From positions 1 to 33,895 of the forward strand of contig CALEEC010000090.1 in the NCBI GenBank assembly GCA_937949245.1: DNA of 33,895 nt, in the 5' to 3' direction. A model generated the notes under the pieces. It did not search any database and had not been told where the DNA came from. It was given only the letters and a program-made list of their open reading frames with translations. The position numbers and the translations under genes were made by a program. Below are positions 2 to 17,535 of the stretch, piece after piece. The stretch comes from an uncultured Gemmataceae bacterium. Its GTDB lineage: Bacteria; Planctomycetota; Planctomycetia; Gemmatales; Gemmataceae. Every line of letters starts with the position of its first letter. Position 1 is the first letter of the stretch.

Positions 2-937
2 GCCCAACTATTGCAGCCCATCGACGAATTTGGGGAAGTGAACGTCCATCGGCTAGCGGATGGCTCGATCCAAGTGATCGCCACGATCTTGCGGGAGCCG
101 GACATCGAAGGTGCCCGAGCCGGCTTAGCCCTCGATGCCAGTGCGTCGATGAAGAAAGCCTACGGTGCCAACGTCGGGCTGTCACCCATCTTTGCGAAAT
201 CCGCTGGGGTGACCAATGAAGTTGAACCCGTGGCCCGCACTATGGCCCAGTATCTGGCTCGCTTTTCCTGCGATAACCAAGCCCACCTGTTGTACTGGGC
301 TTGTGGTGCCGATGGTTCGCAGATCGAGCCGATTGGTGCCGTCTCCAGCGAGGATACCCTCAAATTGCGGATCAACGGTCCGAAAAAACAACCTTGGGGC
401 CGCGGCACCAAACTGCTACCGCCGCTGCGCTATTTCGTCGATATTTTCCGCGATGCCCCTTGGGCCATTTGCGTCTTCGTGACCGACGGTATCATCGAAG
501 ACTTGGCCGAAGTCAAAGAATTCTCTTGGCAATTCGCCCAACAGATCGCCGCGGGCAAACGCAAATTCATCAAGATGGTTCTGTTGGGTGTCGGTGAAGA
601 AGTCGATGAGGGGCAGATGGAAGAACTCGACGACATGTTCAACGATGCCGATCTGACCGATCCCAAAGGCCAGCCGATCGACATCTGGGATCACAAACTC
701 TCCAGCGAAATGCGTTCGTTGACGCAAATTTTTGCTGAGGTAGTCAGCGAAAAAATGATCGTGGCCCGCCAAGGACGCATCCTCGATTCGCGGGGCCGCA
801 CCGTCAAACACTACACCGATGGCGTGCCGGCGATTCTCAAATTCACGCTGCCGGCCGACTCGACTTCGTTCTCGCTGGTTCTGCCCGGGAACGAAATGCT
901 GACCCAAGACATTAGTGAAGGCTTGGCCCGCGTGTGA
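2..937 (+). CDS. VWA-domain protein, 5' end outside window (partial)
   Basis: Partial gene. The reading frame is open to the left edge, and the residues before the TTG at 11 (A-Q-L) still align with the N-terminus of the paralogue at 1141, so the true start lies a few codons upstream of the window. A MIDAS-type metal site is visible: DASAS about 45 residues in, a Thr in the GRGTKL segment, and a TDG motif in the CVFVTDGIIEDL strand. This is the VWA/Rossmann-like fold that binds a divalent metal and protein partners. About 75 residues after the VWA core (IVARQGRILDSRGR onward) form a small, probably beta-rich C-terminal domain shared with the next gene. No signal peptide or membrane segment is seen, so it is probably cytoplasmic. 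The style resembles VWA proteins of tellurium-resistance (TerF/TerY-like) clusters. That is inference and the biological role is unknown. Confidence 0.85.
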   Translation, partial: AQLLQPIDEFGEVNVHRLADGSIQVIATILREPDIEGARAGLALDASASMKKAYGANVGLSPIFAKSAGVTNEVEPVARTMAQYLARFSCDNQAHLLYWACGADGSQIEPIGAVSSEDTLKLRINGPKKQPWGRGTKLLPPLRYFVDIFRDAPWAICVFVTDGIIEDLAEVKEFSWQFAQQIAAGKRKFIKMVLLGVGEEVDEGQMEELDDMFNDADLTDPKGQPIDIWDHKLSSEMRSLTQIFAEVVSEKMIVARQGRILDSRGRTVKHYTDGVPAILKFTLPADSTSFSLVLPGNEMLTQDISEGLARV

Positions 938-1084
938 GCAGTCTTCGGCTTGAAAGTTTTCGTCGGCATGGATGGGTCTGTCCGCCATGAGGTTTCCGGC
1001 CGCGTGAGAGCTGGGAGCATTCTTTGGTCGTGCCAGCGGTGCAGTCGTCGTAGCAATCGCATGTTCGCGAAGGTTTTAGGTTCG

Positions 1085-1098
1085 GCTCCGAGAGGAGC
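1085..1098 (+). promoter_or_regulatory. small GNRA-loop hairpin upstream of second VWA gene
   Basis: GCTCC-GAGA-GGAGC forms a perfect 5-bp stem with a GNRA-type tetraloop, 42 bases before the ATG at 1141. It could be part of the leader RNA of the second VWA gene. It is short enough to be chance. Confidence 0.25.
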
Positions 1099-1140
1099 GT
1101 TGTCGGCCCCCCGAATACTATCGTCAGGTCAGGAGCTAAT

Positions 1141-2169
1141 ATGCCGCCTATTTATGGTCAATTGCCGAGTCAGATGGTCGCCAAAGAGTTCGGCGAAGTC
1201 AACGTCCGTCAAGACGGCGATACCGTCCACATTGTCTTCACCATTTCGATGGAACCGCAGGGGGAAGCGGCCGAGGGGTGGCAGACCGGGGTCGCGCTGG
1301 ATGCCAGTGCATCGATGTACGAAGCCTACGGTCGCTGTCTGGTCGGCCAAGTGCCCGACGACGTGATGGCCCAATACGAACGCCGCGGCTGGATTCAGCG
1401 GCAGGTGCAGGACGGCCAAAGCTATCTGATTTGGCGACAAGAAGGCTCGCAAGACGCCATCCAGCGTGGCTACCTGCGTTACTCGAACAACGACGTGCAG
1501 CAAGCCGCCCGAGAATTCACGGCCTATCTGGCCGGCAATCTCGATGCCGACGGGGGCACAACCGTGGTCTACTGGGCTTGTGGCGATGGTTCGCAGTACG
1601 AAGTCGTGGGCGACTTCACCGCGGAACAGTGCAAGACGCTGGAACTGACCGGTCCCCAACGGATCACGTTCGGCGAAGGAACCCGATTGAAACCGGTGGT
1701 CCAGTATTTCGTCGATCGCTTCGCCGATGCCAAACGCGGAATCTACCTGTTCCTCACCGATGGCCGACTCGATGATCTGGAAGAGGTCAAACGCTACACG
1801 AAACGCCTCGCCCAGGAAATTGAGGCGAAAAAACGCAACTATGTCAAGTGCGTCTTGATCGGCATCGGCGATGAAATCGACGAAAGCCAGATGGAGCAAC
1901 TCGACGACCTGGACACCGGCACGAGCGTCGATATCTGGGACCACAAAATCGCCAAACAGATGCGGAGCATCGTCGAGATTTTCGCCGAGGTGGTCGATGA
2001 AAACCAAATCGTCGCGTCCACGGCTCGCATCTACGATTCTAACGGCAAACTCATCAAGAACTTCACCGATGGTTTGCCGACCAAGGTGAGTTTTTCGATG
2101 TCGGCTCGTTGCCCGTGGTTTGAACTTGAAGTGGGAGACGAGCGGATTCGTCAAGCGATTGCCAACTAG
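1141..2169 (+). CDS. VWA-domain protein, paralogue of the preceding gene
   Basis: A 342-residue VWA protein with a clear start: AGGAG at 1131-1135, 5 bases before the ATG. The MIDAS residues are DASAS at 54-58, a Thr in FGEGTRLKP and TDG in LFLTDGRLDD. It matches the upstream gene closely over the core and the C-terminal domain (FGEVNV, ALDASASM, YWACG, DIWDHK, IFAEVV, TDG-P). Between the MIDAS helix and the next conserved helix it carries about 35 extra residues (roughly 78-116, rich in Tyr, Trp, Arg and Gln) that the first paralogue lacks. There is no signal peptide or membrane segment. The 203-bp gap from the first gene and the shared strand suggest one transcription unit, with the coiled-coil gene at 2281. 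The pair probably arose by tandem duplication. Its binding partner is unknown. Confidence 0.88.
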   Translation: MPPIYGQLPSQMVAKEFGEVNVRQDGDTVHIVFTISMEPQGEAAEGWQTGVALDASASMYEAYGRCLVGQVPDDVMAQYERRGWIQRQVQDGQSYLIWRQEGSQDAIQRGYLRYSNNDVQQAAREFTAYLAGNLDADGGTTVVYWACGDGSQYEVVGDFTAEQCKTLELTGPQRITFGEGTRLKPVVQYFVDRFADAKRGIYLFLTDGRLDDLEEVKRYTKRLAQEIEAKKRNYVKCVLIGIGDEIDESQMEQLDDLDTGTSVDIWDHKIAKQMRSIVEIFAEVVDENQIVASTARIYDSNGKLIKNFTDGLPTKVSFSMSARCPWFELEVGDERIRQAIAN

Positions 2170-2225
2170 GCAACTAGGCTCCGCAGACGATTCTGTTCCG
2201 GCAAACCTCGGACGGCTCGCCAAGG

Positions 2226-2254
2226 GCCGACGACGCGAGTCGATGGGTGTTTTC
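2226..2254 (+). repeat. terminator-like dispersed element, copy 1
   Basis: GCCGACGAC followed by GCGA and GTCG, then GGGTGTTTTC. It matches, in the opposite orientation, the elements at 8036, 24628 and 24751, and sits between the second VWA gene and the coiled-coil gene. The stem is degenerate here (CGAC/GTCG, 4 bp) but the GGTGTTTT tail is kept. It could act as a weak terminator or attenuator inside the cassette. Confidence 0.5.
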
Positions 2255-2280
2255 TCGGGCTAAACCCGGTAGGAATTCTC

Positions 2281-3762
2281 ATGCGTATTCTCAAGACACT
2301 TTCCGCGTTGGCGCTGCGACAAGTCTTAGGGCCGGATCGCGCCGACTCGTTCATCAACTTCGTCAACGATCGCTTCGAGGACAACTCGCAGCGGGTGCAA
2401 CAAGCCTTGCAGGTGGCTAACGAACGCGCTTGGCAGGCGATCGAAATCACGCTGGCCGGCTCGTCGTGGTGGCAGAAAGCGAAGGAAACCCTGTTGCTCA
2501 AAAGCGAAGATCGTGCCCTGAAGCAGCAAATCGAAGAATTTCTGCAAGCGATCGTGATTGATCAACCGCCGGCCGATCAGCCGTTTTTCCGCCAACGGTG
2601 TTTAGAGGAACTCCGCAGTGCCAAAAAACAACGGCTGGTGCCCGGCGAACCGATGCCCGGCATCGAACAACTAACCAGCGAAACCCGTGCCTTGGCCCGC
2701 TTCGATGAGCAAGATCGGCTCTTCCATGCCGAACTGCAAGCGGTAGCCGCGATGGCTCGGGAATTAGAACAACGACAGTTCCCCAGCCTGGCCCAATTCA
2801 TCGGCTTAAAACCGCCGGAAGGTCGGCCGATCTTGGTGACCGCGGTGCGTTACTTTTTCCGCCGTGAAGTCGAAAATGATCCGAAACTCTCCGCCGGCTT
2901 GACCTTCGATCAACTCGACACCCTGTCGCGTGCTCAAGAAGCCGGCTTTGCCAGTCTGCATCAAGCGATGCAGGTGCAAGGGGCGCGACTCGAAGAACTG
3001 TTGGGCAGTGTCCGTGTTCAACTGAATCAGCTGCGGGATCTGACCGAGGAAGTCCGCGACACCGGCAACGAAACGCTGTATGTGGCCCGGTCCACCCAGG
3101 AAGACGTTCAAGCCTTGAAAGCCGAACTGGCCGAACAACGCCAACTGCTCGAAAGCCAACTGAAAGCCTTGGCCCAGATGCTCAGCGGGATCAGTTCGGC
3201 CACCGCGTCGTCTGTCCCAACCTCGTCGCAGCAGCCCCGATTGGCTCCGCCGACGGTGCCGTTAGTCGTCCAGTCGGCCGAACAATCGCGGCAGGACGTC
3301 GAACAAATCGTCGCCTTTTGCAAAACCTTGTCGCAGGAACAACAACGTCAACTGCAACCGGCCATTGAGCGGGTCCGGGAAACCGTGCAGACGTTCTCGA
3401 ATGCCGAACGCCGGTTGCGTCGCCATGCAAAGCCCTCGGCCATCTTTCGCCGTTTGCCTGAACCGACCGAGGCGAGCGAACCGACCGAGGCAAGCGACGG
3501 CAACGAACCCCTCTTCCATACGGTGGTTCCCCCCGTGGTCGCGGATAGGGCAACACTGCAAGAAACCGCGGCGATCGAACGATTGGCCCCGCCGAGGGGA
3601 TCATCCGCGCTTCCCAGTTCGCCCGCGAACGCGTCTTCATCTTCGTCTTCGGCATCGGCATCAACACCGGCACCGACACCGTCCCCGACGCCCGGCAAGA
3701 GGTTACGCCGCAGTATGCCCAACAGCCTGTTCAAACCACCGGAAACAGATTCGGATTCGTGA
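2281..3762 (+). CDS. coiled-coil protein with Ser/Pro-rich tail, third gene of VWA cassette
   Basis: A 493-residue protein I do not recognise as a named family. Residues 1-200 are mostly helical, with no signal peptide, and include a conserved-looking YFFRREVEND segment (191-200). Residues 205-300 are a strong heptad-like coiled coil rich in Gln, Glu, Leu and Ala. Residues 335-382 form a second helical stretch. From about 300 to 335, and from 390 to the end, the chain is low-complexity Ser/Pro/Thr, including a perfect repeat of EPTEAS (bases 3460-3495, two 18-bp units differing at one base). An AGGA sequence lies about 7 bases before the ATG. It follows the two VWA genes by 111 bp on the same strand, so it is probably co-transcribed. 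A scaffold that the VWA proteins bind is a reasonable guess but is not shown. Confidence 0.82.
   Translation: MRILKTLSALALRQVLGPDRADSFINFVNDRFEDNSQRVQQALQVANERAWQAIEITLAGSSWWQKAKETLLLKSEDRALKQQIEEFLQAIVIDQPPADQPFFRQRCLEELRSAKKQRLVPGEPMPGIEQLTSETRALARFDEQDRLFHAELQAVAAMARELEQRQFPSLAQFIGLKPPEGRPILVTAVRYFFRREVENDPKLSAGLTFDQLDTLSRAQEAGFASLHQAMQVQGARLEELLGSVRVQLNQLRDLTEEVRDTGNETLYVARSTQEDVQALKAELAEQRQLLESQLKALAQMLSGISSATASSVPTSSQQPRLAPPTVPLVVQSAEQSRQDVEQIVAFCKTLSQEQQRQLQPAIERVRETVQTFSNAERRLRRHAKPSAIFRRLPEPTEASEPTEASDGNEPLFHTVVPPVVADRATLQETAAIERLAPPRGSSALPSSPANASSSSSSASASTPAPTPSPTPGKRLRRSMPNSLFKPPETDSDS
3460..3495 (+). repeat. two-copy 18-bp in-frame tandem repeat
   Basis: Two adjacent units of GAACCGACCGAGGC(G/A)AGC encode EPTEAS twice inside the disordered tail of the coiled-coil protein. 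The repeat is typical of slippage in a linker. Confidence 0.85.
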
Positions 3763-11196: not shown

Positions 11197-14100
11197 TCAG
11201 CGGTACTTGCGGAAAGCACGCTCCAGACGCCGGGTCTGCGTTGCAGGGGCGAACTTCTCAGCTTCCTCAAGCAATTTACGGCCCTCATCGAGTTTTTGCC
11301 GATTGCCTTTGGCCAGGTCGGGGATCAATTCGCCGAGTTCGTAACGCCACAGCCAGCCGTCGCGATCTTGCGGATGCGTCAATCGTACCGCTTCCCGCAA
11401 CGCTTTTTCCGCATCCTCTTGCAGCAGGTCGGCATTGGCAGTCGCCGTTCGGGCACGCTCTTTCTTGCCTAGCCCGATCGTGCCGTAGACTTCGGCGAGT
11501 AGCCATGGACTGCATTCCCAAGGCGTTTGCTTCACGCTGACCTCAATGCGGTTGAGCATGTTCAGAGCAGCTTCGACTTCGGTCGGTTCAGTGGAAATGA
11601 GTCCACGCCGCGCCCGCAGCAACCGCATGGCCAGAACATTCTCATAAAGCGGCAACTGCATTTGCTCCGAACCGACACGATCGGGAACCTTCTTGGGATC
11701 CTCCAAGGTCGCCTCTGCTGCTTTGAAGATCTCCATCGCAGTCTTGCGGAAGGTGTCGCGTTCCTCTTCCGTGCCCGGTTTTAGCAGCAGAATGCGGGCT
11801 AAAGCATACGATTGCCAGAAGGAAACCAGGCGTTTTTTGCTGAGAGTTTCCGCTTCCTCGAGCAATGGCTTGACTTTGTCGGTTTCGCCGCGTTCCAAAG
11901 CGAGTTCGGCTTGCTCGATCACCAAGGCGGTCAAAGCAACGCTCGCCTGGACCGAGAACGGGCCTTTTTCGGGGACCTTGTTCAGTGTCTCGCGAGCTTC
12001 TTCGTAATCGCGCATCGCCCAGCGGGTCATGCCGATCCAGTATTGCGTTTCTTGGAGATAGTTGCTCAACGACGTGATCGGGTCGTTATTCCGCTTGGCA
12101 TCCTCGACGGCGCGCGTCAGGCGTTTTTCCGCATCGCTGAGGACATCGAGGGCATCTTGGAAGGGCTTGCGTGACTCGCGAGGGACGTCGTAAGCGGCCC
12201 AACGATACAGGCAGCGGCCTAGGTCCATGCGTATCTTGCCGGGGTCTTGCGAGCCGGCTTCGGCAATCGCGCGGCGGAAGGTCGCCACTGCTTCGGGGTA
12301 GCGTTGTTTCTCTCCGCAGGCCCAGGCTAAGTCTTCCATTGCTAAGGCCATCGAGTTGAGCGCTTTTTCTGGCTCTGAGAAATTCGACTCCACCAACGAG
12401 CGATTGATCGCCACCATCTTTTCGAGGATCGACTTTCTTTGAGCACGATCGTAGATCGCCGAGGCGGTTCCGATGCGGATGGCCAATTGGTTCAGCGGCC
12501 GCAAAAACTGATTGCGTTGCGACAGATAGTTTTTGCGGTTCTGCGAATTGGCCAGGGCCGACTCATAGGCCGCCAGTGCCTTCAGTTGCGCGGCTCGGCC
12601 GGCTTGGATCGCTTGGTCACGGGCGGCGCCGGTCAACTTCATCGCTTTGGCGAATTCAGTGTCGGCAACGCCTTCGTCAAGGTAGGCTTCGATCCAGAAC
12701 GCACGCGGATGCTGCGGATCGAGTTGTTTGGCCAACTGCACATCCCGAGCGATGGCCGCCGCGTTCCCTTTGTAGTCCTTGTAATACAGGTAGCCGGCCC
12801 GGGCGACGTAAGCCTCTACCAGGAAATCTTTTTCGATCTTGGAATCTTTGACCAAGTCGATGGCTTTGGTCACTTCCACGTCCGCGGTTTCCCAGCCTTT
12901 CTCGGTGTACTCGAAATTCACTTCGGCCTTTTTCGCCCAGAGGTGAGCCAACCCGAGGCGAATCGGTTCGGGGGCATCCGCTTTCACTTGACTGGCCAGT
13001 TTCAGCCCGGGATCGACTACCGTTTGTACGAGGTTCTCGGCAATCATTTTCGCTCGAGTAGTTGTCATCGAGCGACCGGCCGTGAAGGAGTCGGTTTGCA
13101 CCACAATTTCGCCCAGCAGCGGCAACAATTCCACCGATAGCGGAGCTGCTTTCGACATCTCTAGCAGCAGCGGAATCGAGAGCGGGCCAAGCTGTTTGGC
13201 GGTCTCCAGTTCTAGCGTCGGCAACTGGACCAACTGCTTCAGCGCCGCGTCTTTCTTTTGAATGGCCAGCAGTCCCCCCAAGGCCCGCAAGCGGGGCGAA
13301 GGGATCGAGAGATTCAGCCCAAGTTTCAACCACGCTTCGAGCATGGCAAGATTTTCGGGGGTATCGACGAATACCTCCGTGCTGATCGGCGAGGTGCGAT
13401 CTGCCAAGACCGAACGCGACTCCATCGCTTGGCAAATCAGGGCTTGGCACTGGTGTTTGCGGACATCGGTCAGCCAAGTGGTTGTGTCGCCATCGCTCAA
13501 GCAGCGGAGCAATCGTTCCATCGATGCTTTGGGCGAATCGGTCGAGAAGGTAGCCAGCACCAACAGGTAGCGGCGATAGGCATCGAACGCCTGGTCGTCC
13601 ATCGGAACCTTGCCAGCCAAATCGGTCAATTCCGTTTCCGCCCGACTTCGCGTGGCTCGGTCCAACGATTCGCTCAATTCGAGCTGGACACCGACTTTCG
13701 CCAATTGCACCCAGGGATGTTTCAACGGACTGGTGCTAAGCACTTTCTGGGCGGCTTGCAGATCCGCTTTGGTTTTTGCGCTAAGGATGCGGGTACGAAT
13801 CTTCTCGATCTCCGCACCTTGGATCTTCTCCAAGATGGCATCGCGGACCAGGGGGGGAAAGTCGGCATCGCTCATGTAAGTATCGAGTGCCGCGCCTTTT
13901 TCGACAGCGTCGAGCAGAGCCGTCAACTTCGCCACTCGACGAACCACTTGCGTATGATTCCCCTTAGCCGCGTCTTTGCTGAGCGACACCAGGCGGGCAC
14001 GGAGGATGTCTCTTTTGGCTAACACCTGCGTCAGCGGCGTGAATTCTTTGGCCAGTTCTTGCAAACGCGATTCGGCCTGCTCTTTGGTCATGACCACATC

Positions 14101-17100
14101 GAGCGAACCGATCAGGGCGTTGGCAGCCTGACGATTTTTCTCTTCCACCCTTGGCAAAGCCGATTTTAGGTCGGCCGCCAGTTTCGAGCGATCCACATCG
14201 CTGATGCTGTCTTTACGATCGCTCAGCACTTGGGTGATCTTGGAAAAAAACTCCGAGCGGCTTAATTCGCTAGCTTGGTTGGCCAACGTTTGGGCTAGGG
14301 GGGTCACTTCGTTGGCAGGCACCGTTTTGAGTCGGCCGAGCAGTTCCAGGGCGTCCAGATCGCGTTTTTCGTTCATCGACGATGTTAGATCCCGCAATTC
14401 GCTGATGCGGCGTTCCACTTCGGCAGCCAGCGGTTGCGCCGTGCCGGCTATATACGATTTGGCTTCGGCGAATTTCAGACGGAAATCCAGAGCGCGGAAC
14501 TCTTTTTCGACCTCGGCATCGGTACGATTGCGGCCCCGGCTTTCGGTCAGGTAGACTTGCATTTCGTCGGCACGATCGGCTTCACTGATTCCCGGTCGAC
14601 GGACGTGTTCTGACCATTTCAGGAAGAGTTGATTTTCCTCCGCGAAGGCTTTGTCGGCCAACTTGGCCCGATGCTGCTTTAAGAAGCGGAGGGCTTCTTC
14701 AAACTTCTTCTCCTCCACGAGTTTGGTCAGTGCCTGCAACGTTTGCGGGTCGGCTTCGACGGGTTTGGGCACTACGTTGGTCGCGGGCGTATCGGCGACC
14801 AGCGACTTATCGACCACTAATTGGGCCGCGATACCATTATTGGAGAAGTGGTCGCCTTCGATGGAAGGGGGCGTCAGCAGCAACAGCATTGCTACGACGA
14901 GAGCGGCGGCACTGACGAACACGAGCACCCCGGCTAACAGAGAATTAGAATTCGAGCGTAGCGGTGCCGTGCCGTAGGTCGGCGCTCCCGGTGGCATTAA
15001 TCCCACGGGAACTTGCGGATGCTGCCAGCCTCGGTCGCTCACGGGGGTCGTACCCACCGAGGCGGGCGTCGGATGCAAAGTGTCTGTGGGATACCCACTT
15101 GGTAGAGCTGCGGTGTTCGTTCCTGGAGCCGGATAAACCGGAACTTCCGTTGAAGCAGGAAGATTAGCAAACTGCGATGGTTCAAGAATCCCCGGCGGCA
15201 GGCTATCATCGGGGCCGTAGTTCGGCGTCGATAGCACAGGTCTGCTCGGTATGGGCCGGCCCAGCGGCGGTTGTCCTCGCATTCCCCCTCCTCCGAGGGA
15301 CAGCGGCGGACTGCCCGCGGCCAAAGGAGGTTGTGCCGCAGCAGGCGAGATCCCCGGGGTCGGCGGAGGTGTATTCATGCCGGGAAGGGGACCGCTATAG
15401 GTATCTGCAGCGGCATCCGAAAGCCCCAATTGCTTCAATTTGTTGAGATCGGCGGTGCCATGCGCACCGGTGCCAATTCCTGGAATCTTCGGCGGCGGCG
15501 GAGGGGGCGGAGGCGGAACCTGTAATGGGGGGCGATCGACCGGCGGACGGGTGGAGATATTCACCATGCTCCCCATACTGGGCCGACTCGGCTTGCGTAC
15601 TCCGCTGTCACTGCTGGAGTCGCTGGTCAGCGGCAGAATTCGCGCATTCGGATCGATAAACGGGGCGCAGGCGCGTTCTAGAGCCGTGACCATTTCCACG
15701 CAGCTATCGTAACGATTTTTCGGGATGACCGACGTGGCCCGCCGAAGCACCGCTTGTTCGAGTTCCGGTACCAACGAAAAGTCGAGCCGGCCCTCCATGT
15801 GCATCATGATGAGCGTATGGATCGGCGTGTTTTTATCAAACGGCAGTTCGCCGGTACGGAGTTTGTAGTAGGTTACCGCCAACGAATATTGATCGCTCCA
15901 TCGTGTGACCTGATTGCGGAACACCTCGGCAGCGGCGTAGTAATAGGTGAAGCCGACGCTCGCTTCGTGAATGATGCTCGCCCCCCCTTCGACCACTTTG
16001 GCTAGGCCGAAGTCGCTCACTTTGACGTGATTATCGCGGGTCAGCAGCAGGTTTTCCGGCTTGATGTCGCGGTGCTGGATGTCCTGCTCGTTCATGTAGT
16101 CGATCGCTTCGGCTGCTTCTCGCGTATAGCGCAGCAGTTCGATCAATGGAATGCCGGTGCCCGGTTGCGGATTGATTTTCTGATAATCCTTCAACCGCTG
16201 CATCAGGTTCTTCTCGGCCTTCATCGTGGCGACGACGAGCATCGAGGCTGGCGGTTGTTCGGGAGTATTCAGCAATTCTTCGTCGATGACGTTGCTTTGA
16301 TCGTCCAGCAACCAGTAGGCTTGAATCTCCATCAGGTGCGCGTGGGTGATGTTCTTCATGATCTCCAACGCGCGGAACTCTTGGCGTCCTTCTTTGGCTT
16401 CGAGATTGCGGACGATTTTTAGGGCACAGGGTCGGCCACCGGGGGCACGTCCTTCCCAAACTTCGCCATAGCCCCCGCGTCCGAGCAATCTTTTCAGCTT
16501 GTAGCCGAAACCGATGTCCGAGTCGGCCGTCAACAGCGTATCAGGATGGACACCGGCTTTGCTGACTGAACGCGAGACGCCCCGTCCCGTCACTCCTTCG
16601 CCGCCCCCGCCTTCCAAGCAACGCCGTAGTTCGCGGACCATGTCGGTAGTCGTCGGCCAGCGTTTTTCAGGATCAAGTGCGGTCGCTCGCTTGATCACGC
16701 GTTGTTCACCAATCGGCAGTCGGCTCAGATCGAGTTGTCCTTGGCTATGAATGGCCAGCAACTCGTAGGCATTTTTGGCCTCGAACGGCAGTTTGCCGGT
16801 GCGCAATTCAACGTAGGTGATGGCCAAGGAATACTGATCGGTCCATTGCGACGGATGACCGGCGATGAATTCCGGGGCGACATAATATGGCGAGGCAGCA
16901 TTCGCCGCGGTAGCCGCCTCTTGACCGAAGACGCGTGCCAAGCCGAAATCGCAGACTTTGGCGCGGCGACCGACGATCAGAATGTTGCCCGGCTTGATGT
17001 CGCAATGCTGGATGCCGCCCGGAAAGCCAGTGCCCGCATGCTGCGTCGGATCGTTCAGGTAATCCAACGCACTGGCCGCGTCTTCCATGTAGATCATCAA

Positions 17101-17535
17101 TTCCAACGGCGGAATCCCTTGCAACCCTTCGGCTTTGCACTCCTTAAGCCGATCGGCCAGACTTTTTTCGCCCAACCCCATGGCAATAATCAGTTCCGAC
17201 GCTTTGCCGGCCAGCAAAGTGGTTTCCGACGCATTGTTATTGCTATCGAGCAACCCACCGCGATCGTCTTTGAGCCAGAACGCGATAATGTCGATCAGGT
17301 TAGGGTGGTTGAGCTTACGGAAAAAGCGAATCGCCTGGAACTCTTTCAGACCTTGGCGATTGCGTAGGGGAATGATTTTGATGGCTTTCTCGGTGCCCCC
17401 GGCGAAGACAGCCTTCCACACTTCGCCGATCCCGCCTTCCCCGATGAATTCGGTCAAACGATAGCCCTGGACCGGCTCATCCCCGGCCTTATAGCGGGTA
17501 CGAGTGCTCCGAGTGGGTCGCGTTCCTGGCTGCAT
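11197..17535 (-). CDS. giant transmembrane Ser/Thr protein kinase with two kinase domains and helical-repeat tail
   Basis: A 2112-residue receptor-like kinase. Kinase domain 1 spans residues 25-307: glycine loop GEGGIGEVW 32-40, Lys53, catalytic loop HCDIKPGN 177-184, DFG 196-198, APE intact. Domain 2 spans 345-622: GRGGYGEVW 352-360, Lys373, HRDIKPEN 488-495, DFG 508-510, but AAE (535-537) where APE is expected. Both keep the Lys/Asp/Asp set, so both could be active. Domain 1 has Cys instead of Arg before the catalytic Asp. Next comes about 200 residues of Pro-rich linker (with a run of nine prolines near 674-682), one membrane helix (about 866-888), then some 1220 residues of charged helices, in part TPR-like, on the far side of the membrane. 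GGGAG precedes the ATG by about 9 bases. The signal sensed and the targets are unknown. Confidence 0.93.
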   Translation of the reverse strand: MQPGTRPTRSTRTRYKAGDEPVQGYRLTEFIGEGGIGEVWKAVFAGGTEKAIKIIPLRNRQGLKEFQAIRFFRKLNHPNLIDIIAFWLKDDRGGLLDSNNNASETTLLAGKASELIIAMGLGEKSLADRLKECKAEGLQGIPPLELMIYMEDAASALDYLNDPTQHAGTGFPGGIQHCDIKPGNILIVGRRAKVCDFGLARVFGQEAATAANAASPYYVAPEFIAGHPSQWTDQYSLAITYVELRTGKLPFEAKNAYELLAIHSQGQLDLSRLPIGEQRVIKRATALDPEKRWPTTTDMVRELRRCLEGGGGEGVTGRGVSRSVSKAGVHPDTLLTADSDIGFGYKLKRLLGRGGYGEVWEGRAPGGRPCALKIVRNLEAKEGRQEFRALEIMKNITHAHLMEIQAYWLLDDQSNVIDEELLNTPEQPPASMLVVATMKAEKNLMQRLKDYQKINPQPGTGIPLIELLRYTREAAEAIDYMNEQDIQHRDIKPENLLLTRDNHVKVSDFGLAKVVEGGASIIHEASVGFTYYYAAAEVFRNQVTRWSDQYSLAVTYYKLRTGELPFDKNTPIHTLIMMHMEGRLDFSLVPELEQAVLRRATSVIPKNRYDSCVEMVTALERACAPFIDPNARILPLTSDSSSDSGVRKPSRPSMGSMVNISTRPPVDRPPLQVPPPPPPPPPKIPGIGTGAHGTADLNKLKQLGLSDAAADTYSGPLPGMNTPPPTPGISPAAAQPPLAAGSPPLSLGGGGMRGQPPLGRPIPSRPVLSTPNYGPDDSLPPGILEPSQFANLPASTEVPVYPAPGTNTAALPSGYPTDTLHPTPASVGTTPVSDRGWQHPQVPVGLMPPGAPTYGTAPLRSNSNSLLAGVLVFVSAAALVVAMLLLLTPPSIEGDHFSNNGIAAQLVVDKSLVADTPATNVVPKPVEADPQTLQALTKLVEEKKFEEALRFLKQHRAKLADKAFAEENQLFLKWSEHVRRPGISEADRADEMQVYLTESRGRNRTDAEVEKEFRALDFRLKFAEAKSYIAGTAQPLAAEVERRISELRDLTSSMNEKRDLDALELLGRLKTVPANEVTPLAQTLANQASELSRSEFFSKITQVLSDRKDSISDVDRSKLAADLKSALPRVEEKNRQAANALIGSLDVVMTKEQAESRLQELAKEFTPLTQVLAKRDILRARLVSLSKDAAKGNHTQVVRRVAKLTALLDAVEKGAALDTYMSDADFPPLVRDAILEKIQGAEIEKIRTRILSAKTKADLQAAQKVLSTSPLKHPWVQLAKVGVQLELSESLDRATRSRAETELTDLAGKVPMDDQAFDAYRRYLLVLATFSTDSPKASMERLLRCLSDGDTTTWLTDVRKHQCQALICQAMESRSVLADRTSPISTEVFVDTPENLAMLEAWLKLGLNLSIPSPRLRALGGLLAIQKKDAALKQLVQLPTLELETAKQLGPLSIPLLLEMSKAAPLSVELLPLLGEIVVQTDSFTAGRSMTTTRAKMIAENLVQTVVDPGLKLASQVKADAPEPIRLGLAHLWAKKAEVNFEYTEKGWETADVEVTKAIDLVKDSKIEKDFLVEAYVARAGYLYYKDYKGNAAAIARDVQLAKQLDPQHPRAFWIEAYLDEGVADTEFAKAMKLTGAARDQAIQAGRAAQLKALAAYESALANSQNRKNYLSQRNQFLRPLNQLAIRIGTASAIYDRAQRKSILEKMVAINRSLVESNFSEPEKALNSMALAMEDLAWACGEKQRYPEAVATFRRAIAEAGSQDPGKIRMDLGRCLYRWAAYDVPRESRKPFQDALDVLSDAEKRLTRAVEDAKRNNDPITSLSNYLQETQYWIGMTRWAMRDYEEARETLNKVPEKGPFSVQASVALTALVIEQAELALERGETDKVKPLLEEAETLSKKRLVSFWQSYALARILLLKPGTEEERDTFRKTAMEIFKAAEATLEDPKKVPDRVGSEQMQLPLYENVLAMRLLRARRGLISTEPTEVEAALNMLNRIEVSVKQTPWECSPWLLAEVYGTIGLGKKERARTATANADLLQEDAEKALREAVRLTHPQDRDGWLWRYELGELIPDLAKGNRQKLDEGRKLLEEAEKFAPATQTRRLERAFRKYR

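What the first reader, a model, noticed from the sequence alone, without database searches (positions are those of the whole stretch)
2..3762. Cassette of two paralogous VWA proteins and a coiled-coil protein
Two VWA proteins with intact MIDAS motifs and a shared extra C-terminal domain are followed on the same strand by a protein with a strong coiled coil and a disordered tail. Duplicated VWA genes beside a scaffold-like gene suggest a multi-protein complex rather than two separate functions. The MIDAS style recalls VWA proteins of Ter-type stress clusters, but the coiled-coil partner is unfamiliar to me. This is the best candidate in the window for an undescribed system. The first gene continues off the left edge, so the cassette may be larger.
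Basis: partly seen in the sequence, partly recalled or inferred. Interest (0 to 1): 0.62.

Follow-up and report, generated by a model that had tools for sequence, protein, structure and literature searches.

The report
VWA pair with swapped adaptor partner
Three neighbouring genes in a planctomycete encode two long-conserved VWA (metal-binding, protein-gripping) proteins and an adaptor protein that takes the place of the kinase/phosphatase (TerY-P) partner these VWA pairs usually have, which points to an undescribed variant of a bacterial stress or anti-virus signalling system.

Summary
Window 2-937 (missing only its start codon), 1141-2169 and 2281-3762 encode two VWA proteins with intact MIDAS motifs and a helical/coiled-coil protein with a disordered tail. 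The window is a whole contig, so nothing lies further left. The VWA1-VWA2 pair is ancient: the slots form separate clades, and the genes are adjacent in 40 of 48 loci across planctomycetes, cyanobacteria, gammaproteobacteria, myxobacteria and others. In 21 loci the pair sits beside a TerY-P module (small VWA, PP2C, Ser/Thr kinase, often TerY). In 10 others, the window included, it sits beside a protein with the window's N-terminal module; none has both. In two relatives that partner carries a Ser/Thr kinase; elsewhere in Gemmataceae the module heads kinases fused to WD40, FGE-sulfatase, NPCBM, HEAT, TPR or UDG. It joined VWA pairs at least twice, probably three times. Every complete partner tail carries a short motif (hydrophobic-small-x-hydrophobic-Phe), seen again in loci found afterwards and no commoner than chance in module proteins away from VWA pairs. 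Best reading: a VWA-pair chassis with exchangeable signalling partners; the window holds a kinase-less adaptor version. Complex formation and biological role are inferred.

The parts
2..937 (+). VWA1: Ter-type VWA protein, 311 aa, only the start codon is cut off by the contig end
   Evidence: ORF; alignment with complete relatives; slot-1 clade
134..148 (+). VWA1 MIDAS motif 1, D45-A-S-A-S49 (with T136 at 407-409 and D162 at 485-487)
764..913 (+). VWA1 C-terminal beta-rich stretch shared with VWA2
   Evidence: alignment A3; strands by analogy with the VWA2 model
1141..2169 (+). VWA2: second VWA protein, 342 aa
   Evidence: ORF; relatives at 42-64% identity in 44 named loci; model pLDDT 94
1300..1314 (+). 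VWA2 MIDAS motif 1, D54-A-S-A-S58 (with T181 at 1681-1683 and D207 at 1759-1761)
   Evidence: invariant in 39 rows
2008..2157 (+). VWA2 C-terminal beta-rich stretch
   Evidence: strands in the model at residues 290-339
2281..3762 (+). Adaptor protein, 493 aa: N-module, coiled coil, disordered tail
   Evidence: ORF; relatives
2281..2910 (+). N-module (residues 1-~210), also the N-terminus of many Gemmataceae kinases
   Evidence: helical model, pLDDT 65
2881..3198 (+). Coiled-coil helix (residues 201-306)
3199..3759 (+). S/P/A-rich tail (residues 307-493), likely disordered
   Evidence: composition
3433..3447 (+). Tail motif 1, PSAIF (residues 385-389)
3718..3732 (+). Tail motif 2, PNSLF (residues 480-484), near the C-terminus
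   Evidence: counterparts PNHLF, PSALF, LSPIF, LGGAF, LGKAF in other cassettes

Best explanation
A three-gene signalling cassette built on an ancient VWA1-VWA2 pair of the Ter (TerF-like) type. Inferred mechanism: the two VWA proteins act together as a MIDAS-metal-dependent scaffold and the third gene supplies the signalling arm. In many lineages that arm is a TerY-P module (small VWA, PP2C phosphatase, kinase). In the window it is an N-module adaptor that oligomerises through its coiled coil and docks to the VWA pair through Phe-containing motifs in its tail. In two relatives the same slot holds an N-module protein with its own Ser/Thr kinase, so the likely output is phosphorylation-type stress or anti-phage signalling, with the window's kinase-less version a scaffold or regulator. 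Shown: gene order, intact MIDAS, ancient pairing, N-module/kinase homology, no locus with both partners, repeated recruitment, tail motif. Inferred: physical complex, docking role of the motif, phosphorylation output, stress or defence role.
For: VWA genes adjacent on one strand in 40 of 48 loci from many phyla, often overlapping by 4 bp; slot 1 and slot 2 are separate supported clades. N-module partner in 10 loci, TerY-P genes in 21, both in 0 (Fisher P 0.0026). No TerY-P kinase orthologue in eight Gemmataceae genomes with the N-module cassette, while the three control genomes rang. Partner with active-looking Ser/Thr kinase in G022 and G035. N-module fused to kinases and sensor/effector-like domains elsewhere and to VWA domains in cis. 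One origin of all cassette N-modules rejected, p-AU 0.011. Tail motif in 9 of 9 complete cassette partners (18 seen, about 1.6 expected) against 8 seen, about 14 expected in 20 N-module proteins elsewhere; seen again in L205 and L206, found later.
Against: No direct evidence of binding. The motif pattern was drawn from the cassette sequences, so its excess over shuffles is partly circular and the out-of-sample set is small and related. No TerY-P protein carries the motif above chance, so the motif need not bind the VWA pair. In Thiotrichaceae TerY-P exists elsewhere in the genome. No recurring defence neighbours. Several TerY-P-lacking contigs are short.
Confidence: 0.55

Rival explanations
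1. Decayed kinase cassette: the third protein is an N-module kinase that lost its kinase domain, so the window holds a degenerating, non-signalling remnant.
For: Kinase-bearing partners occupy the same slot in G022 and G035; a related N-module gene in G021 is broken by a stop.
Against: The six kinase-less Gemmataceae partners form their own clade (98/97*), are intact at 410-537 aa where complete, and keep tail motifs; kinase-less partners also occur in Thiotrichaceae.
Confidence: 0.12
2. Not signalling but metal or stress handling: the VWA pair and coiled-coil protein form a structural chaperone-like or cytoskeletal complex, and the link to kinases is incidental.
For: VWA-MIDAS proteins also serve chaperone complexes such as NorD and ViaA (PMC9976466, PMC10585395, listed); strong coiled coil.
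Against: No AAA+ (MoxR) partner found beside the N-module cassettes; the usual partner of the pair is a kinase/phosphatase module.
Confidence: 0.22
3. Chance neighbours: three genes that happen to lie together in a fragmented genome.
For: Intergenic gaps in the window are 203 and 111 bp, larger than in tight operons.
Against: The same order recurs in divergent Gemmataceae and in Thiotrichaceae, with overlapping genes in several; in the L139 and L140 genomes the only N-module protein is the one in the cassette.
Confidence: 0.03

Closest known systems
TerY-P triad (TerY-like VWA, PP2C phosphatase, Ser/Thr kinase)
   Same: The same VWA1-VWA2 pair lies beside TerY-P genes in 21 loci; kinase-bearing N-module partners suggest the same kind of output. 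TerY-P is described as a metal-sensing phosphorylation switch (PMC11090510) and as acting against T7-like phages (PMC7699616).
   Different: The window cassette has no TerY, PP2C or TerY-P kinase; one adaptor replaces them.
Ter clusters with TerF-like vWA, StiP and PRTase (PF10138 and neighbours)
   Same: The window VWA family occurs in such a cluster in G047 (PRTase_2, StiP, TerY, PP2C, kinase); weak match to the TerF-like vWA model.
   Different: Scores lie below the Pfam cut-off (22.6 against 29.4 bits for VWA2); no TerB, TerC or TerD was found beside the N-module cassettes.
VMAP and other vWA-MoxR ternary conflict systems (PMC7159879)
   Same: A VWA protein in a small operon with a modular adaptor, in multicellular or colonial lineages.
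   Different: No MoxR ATPase or VMAP domain in the window cassette; two VWA proteins instead of one.
Expanded Ser/Thr kinases of Gemmataceae (PMC11032199)
   Same: N-module kinases with TPR or WD40 repeats are of this kind.
   Different: That paper's main text mentions neither VWA nor von Willebrand; the kinase-less, VWA-linked form is not described there.

Membership tests
TerY-P triad | TerY-like VWA with TerY_C metal-binding domain | tested here: not met
   No TerY_C match in the three window proteins or in G000 (an incomplete genome; no control rang in that search, but the model does ring in L074 and L110)
TerY-P triad | PP2C phosphatase and TerY-P kinase beside the VWA gene | tested here: not met
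   None in the window; no TerY-P kinase orthologue in G000 or seven related genomes
TerF-like vWA family (PF10138) | Score above the curated cut-off (29.4 bits) | tested here: not met
   VWA1 12.9 and VWA2 22.6 bits; 15 of 39 family members match weakly, best E 1.5e-5
VWA superfamily with MIDAS | VWA fold and DxSxS...T...D | tested here: met
   Motif; VWA folds such as RGLG1 among the best PDB matches
VMAP / vWA-MoxR ternary system | MoxR AAA+ ATPase and VMAP component in the operon | tested here: not met
   No AAA+ or VMAP gene in the cassette or recurring beside its relatives; upstream side of the window not available
N-module kinases of Gemmataceae | Shared N-terminal module | tested here: met
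   31-42% identity over about 240-290 residues, E down to 1e-77
N-module kinases of Gemmataceae | Ser/Thr kinase domain | tested here: not met
   No kinase match in the 493-aa window protein
Known anti-phage defence systems | Match to a defence-gene model | tested here: not met
   No PADLOC match for the three window proteins; the L112 kinase matches generic defence kinases only
Known anti-phage defence systems | Protection against phage | not testable with these tools
   Needs a bench assay

The most novel reading that the evidence does not exclude
The N-module is a new homotypic adaptor domain, and the VWA1-VWA2 pair is a portable signalling chassis whose partner has been swapped repeatedly, with a tail motif evolved each time to plug N-module proteins into the pair: a stand-alone, undescribed stress or anti-phage system.
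Probability: 0.3. Interest if true: 0.7.

Novelty: new variant of a known kind. Interest (0 to 1): 0.52.

Why it matters
TerY-P modules are linked to tellurite resistance and phage defence, but how their VWA proteins connect to kinases is open. A natural partner swap, with the same VWA pair beside a TerY-P module in one lineage and beside a single N-module adaptor (with or without its own kinase) in another, isolates what the VWA pair does and names a concrete docking motif to test. The N-module is also an unnamed domain heading many multidomain kinases of Gemmataceae, so its function bears on the large signalling expansion of that family.

Tried and rejected
(1) Sequence to the left: impossible, the window is the whole contig. 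(2) Family libraries: nothing above cut-off for the three proteins in Pfam or NCBIfam, nothing in PADLOC; EzrA, ZapG and Csm2 hits look like coiled-coil noise; NF047472 LA_3696_Nterm (E 2.8e-4, residues 12-39) is a faint lead not followed. (3) Fold search of the N-module: no match at E <= 0.001, and the model (pLDDT 65) is too weak to claim a new fold. (4) Tail motif in TerY-P partners: not above chance. (5) N-module search in 392 planctomycete genomes drawn across the phylum: only weak matches besides the window's own; the strong ones are in the window's family and a few Thiotrichaceae. (6) More cassettes for an out-of-sample test: the family search appeared to return records already held; Thiotrichaceae gave L205 and the short contig L206. 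(7) Recurring neighbours: none. (9) Papers on PF10138 / TerF VWA pairs: nothing relevant in the open library. (10) Chance neighbours and a local tandem duplication were considered and rejected.

Full report
What is there. The window is a complete contig (G000:C90). Its first three genes run on the plus strand: VWA1 (2-937), VWA2 (1141-2169) and a 493-aa helical protein (2281-3762). Alignment with complete relatives shows that VWA1 lacks only its start codon. Both VWA proteins keep the full MIDAS, invariant in 39 aligned family members. VWA2 is modelled at pLDDT 94 with a VWA core, an N-terminal hairpin and a C-terminal beta-rich stretch; VWA domains such as RGLG1 are among the best PDB fold matches. 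The third protein has a helical N-terminal region (residues 1-~210, called here the N-module), a long coiled-coil helix (201-306) and an S/P/A-rich tail.

The VWA pair is ancient and spread widely. VWA2 relatives at 42-64% identity occur in Gemmataceae and other planctomycetes, Cyanobacteria (Nostoc, Symploca, Desmonostoc), Gammaproteobacteria (Thiomargarita, Thioploca, Competibacter), Desulfobacteraceae, Myxococcota, Verrucomicrobia and others; MAG titles carry some risk of misbinning. In 40 of 48 loci two VWA-family genes are adjacent on one strand, often overlapping by 4 bp. In a tree of 118 VWA rows, slot 1 and slot 2 fall into separate supported groups (98* and 95*), so the duplication predates the spread of the pair. 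In the window's family 14 of 95 genomes have a close VWA2: a patchy, accessory distribution.

Two alternative partners. In 21 loci the pair sits with genes of a TerY-P module: a small VWA, PP2C and a kinase, often with TerY bearing its metal-binding C-terminal domain; in G047 also with PRTase_2 and StiP. In 10 loci, the window included, it sits with an N-module protein. None of the 48 has both (Fisher P 0.0026). In eight Gemmataceae-family genomes with the N-module cassette, including two single-contig ones, no TerY-P kinase orthologue was found anywhere, while the three control genomes rang. In Thiotrichaceae a TerY-P module exists elsewhere in the genome, so the two coexist there.

What the adaptor is. 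In G022 and G035 the partner in the same slot continues after the coiled coil into a TPR-like stretch and a Ser/Thr kinase with its catalytic motifs. Elsewhere in the same family of bacteria the N-module starts proteins with kinase plus UDG, HEAT, WD40, FGE-sulfatase, NPCBM or long TPR arrays, proteins with repeats but no kinase match, and helical-repeat/VWA proteins. It is therefore a modular N-terminal adaptor, without a family model or a solved relative. In two Thiotrichaceae genomes (L139, L140) the only N-module protein is the one in the VWA cassette.

Repeated recruitment and a tail motif. In the N-module tree (30 rows) six kinase-less Gemmataceae-type cassette proteins form one clade (98/97*), the two cassette kinases group elsewhere, and the Thiotrichaceae ones elsewhere again on a long branch; a single origin of all ten is rejected (p-AU 0.011), a single origin of the eight kinase-less ones is not (p 0.205). 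In the VWA tree the Thiotrichaceae VWA2 groups with other Thiotrichaceae VWA2s, some beside TerY-P (97*), and the VWA1 of the kinase cassettes belongs to a different VWA1 subgroup from the window's. So N-module proteins came to lie next to VWA pairs at least twice, probably three times. All nine complete cassette tails contain a motif of the form [LIVMP][GASPN]x[AILV][FW], e.g. PNSLF, PSALF, LSPIF, LGGAF, LGKAF: 18 against about 1.6 expected from shuffles. Twenty N-module proteins away from VWA pairs have 8 against about 14 expected. The pattern was drawn from the cassette sequences, so the excess is partly circular. A cassette found later (L205) ends in YILGAAFR, and a further protein (L206, on a short contig and close to L140) has VRLGKAFQ near its end.

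Mechanism. Shown: order, MIDAS, deep conservation of the pair, homology of the adaptor to kinases, no locus with both partners, repeated recruitment, tail motif. Inferred: the VWA pair forms a metal-dependent scaffold; the adaptor oligomerises by its coiled coil and docks by its tail; output is phosphorylation-type signalling, direct in the kinase versions and regulatory or scaffolding in the window. A stress or anti-phage role is inferred from TerY-P, described as a metal-sensing phosphorylation switch associated with restriction systems (PMC11090510) and as acting against T7-like phages (PMC7699616). No neighbours recur around the N-module cassettes, so that step is the weakest.

Filing. It is not a TerY-P triad (TerY, PP2C and kinase absent), not a VMAP ternary system (no MoxR or VMAP found), and VWA1/VWA2 fall below the TerF-like Pfam cut-off. 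It works like a Ter-type VWA signalling module with another partner: a new variant of a known kind.

Noticed in passing
L089:1899-5435 (G035:C263): An N-module/VWA fusion protein carries an intein (Intein_splicing and LAGLIDADG matches) inserted in its MIDAS motif, between DK and SGSM.
   Followed up: partly
L075-L087, and G000:C108 (L083): Gemmataceae genomes carry further VWA genes of the same family, often in tandem, away from any N-module gene; several have a long disordered C-terminal tail ending in a recurrent motif such as LEFDKP or LEFNK.
   Followed up: partly
L102:4056-7199 (G036:C210): N-module + kinase + FGE-sulfatase protein; the near-identical copy in G036:C129 (L103) reads only 366 aa and may be broken.
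   Followed up: no
L207:2015-2908 (G532): A divergent stand-alone N-module-like protein (297 aa) without VWA neighbours on a short contig; the module family may be wider than found here.
   Followed up: no
L139, L140, L205, L206: Thiotrichaceae partners carry a second repeated tail motif (LPDFWL, LADFWL, LPNWLL) and some an InlB-like beta repeat insertion.
   Followed up: no
window 1129-2223, minus strand: A 364-aa antisense open frame lies over VWA2; judged a shadow ORF of GC-rich coding sequence.
   Followed up: yes
window 11197-17535, minus strand: A 2112-aa open frame with a kinase-like match to the L071 kinase domain.
   Followed up: no
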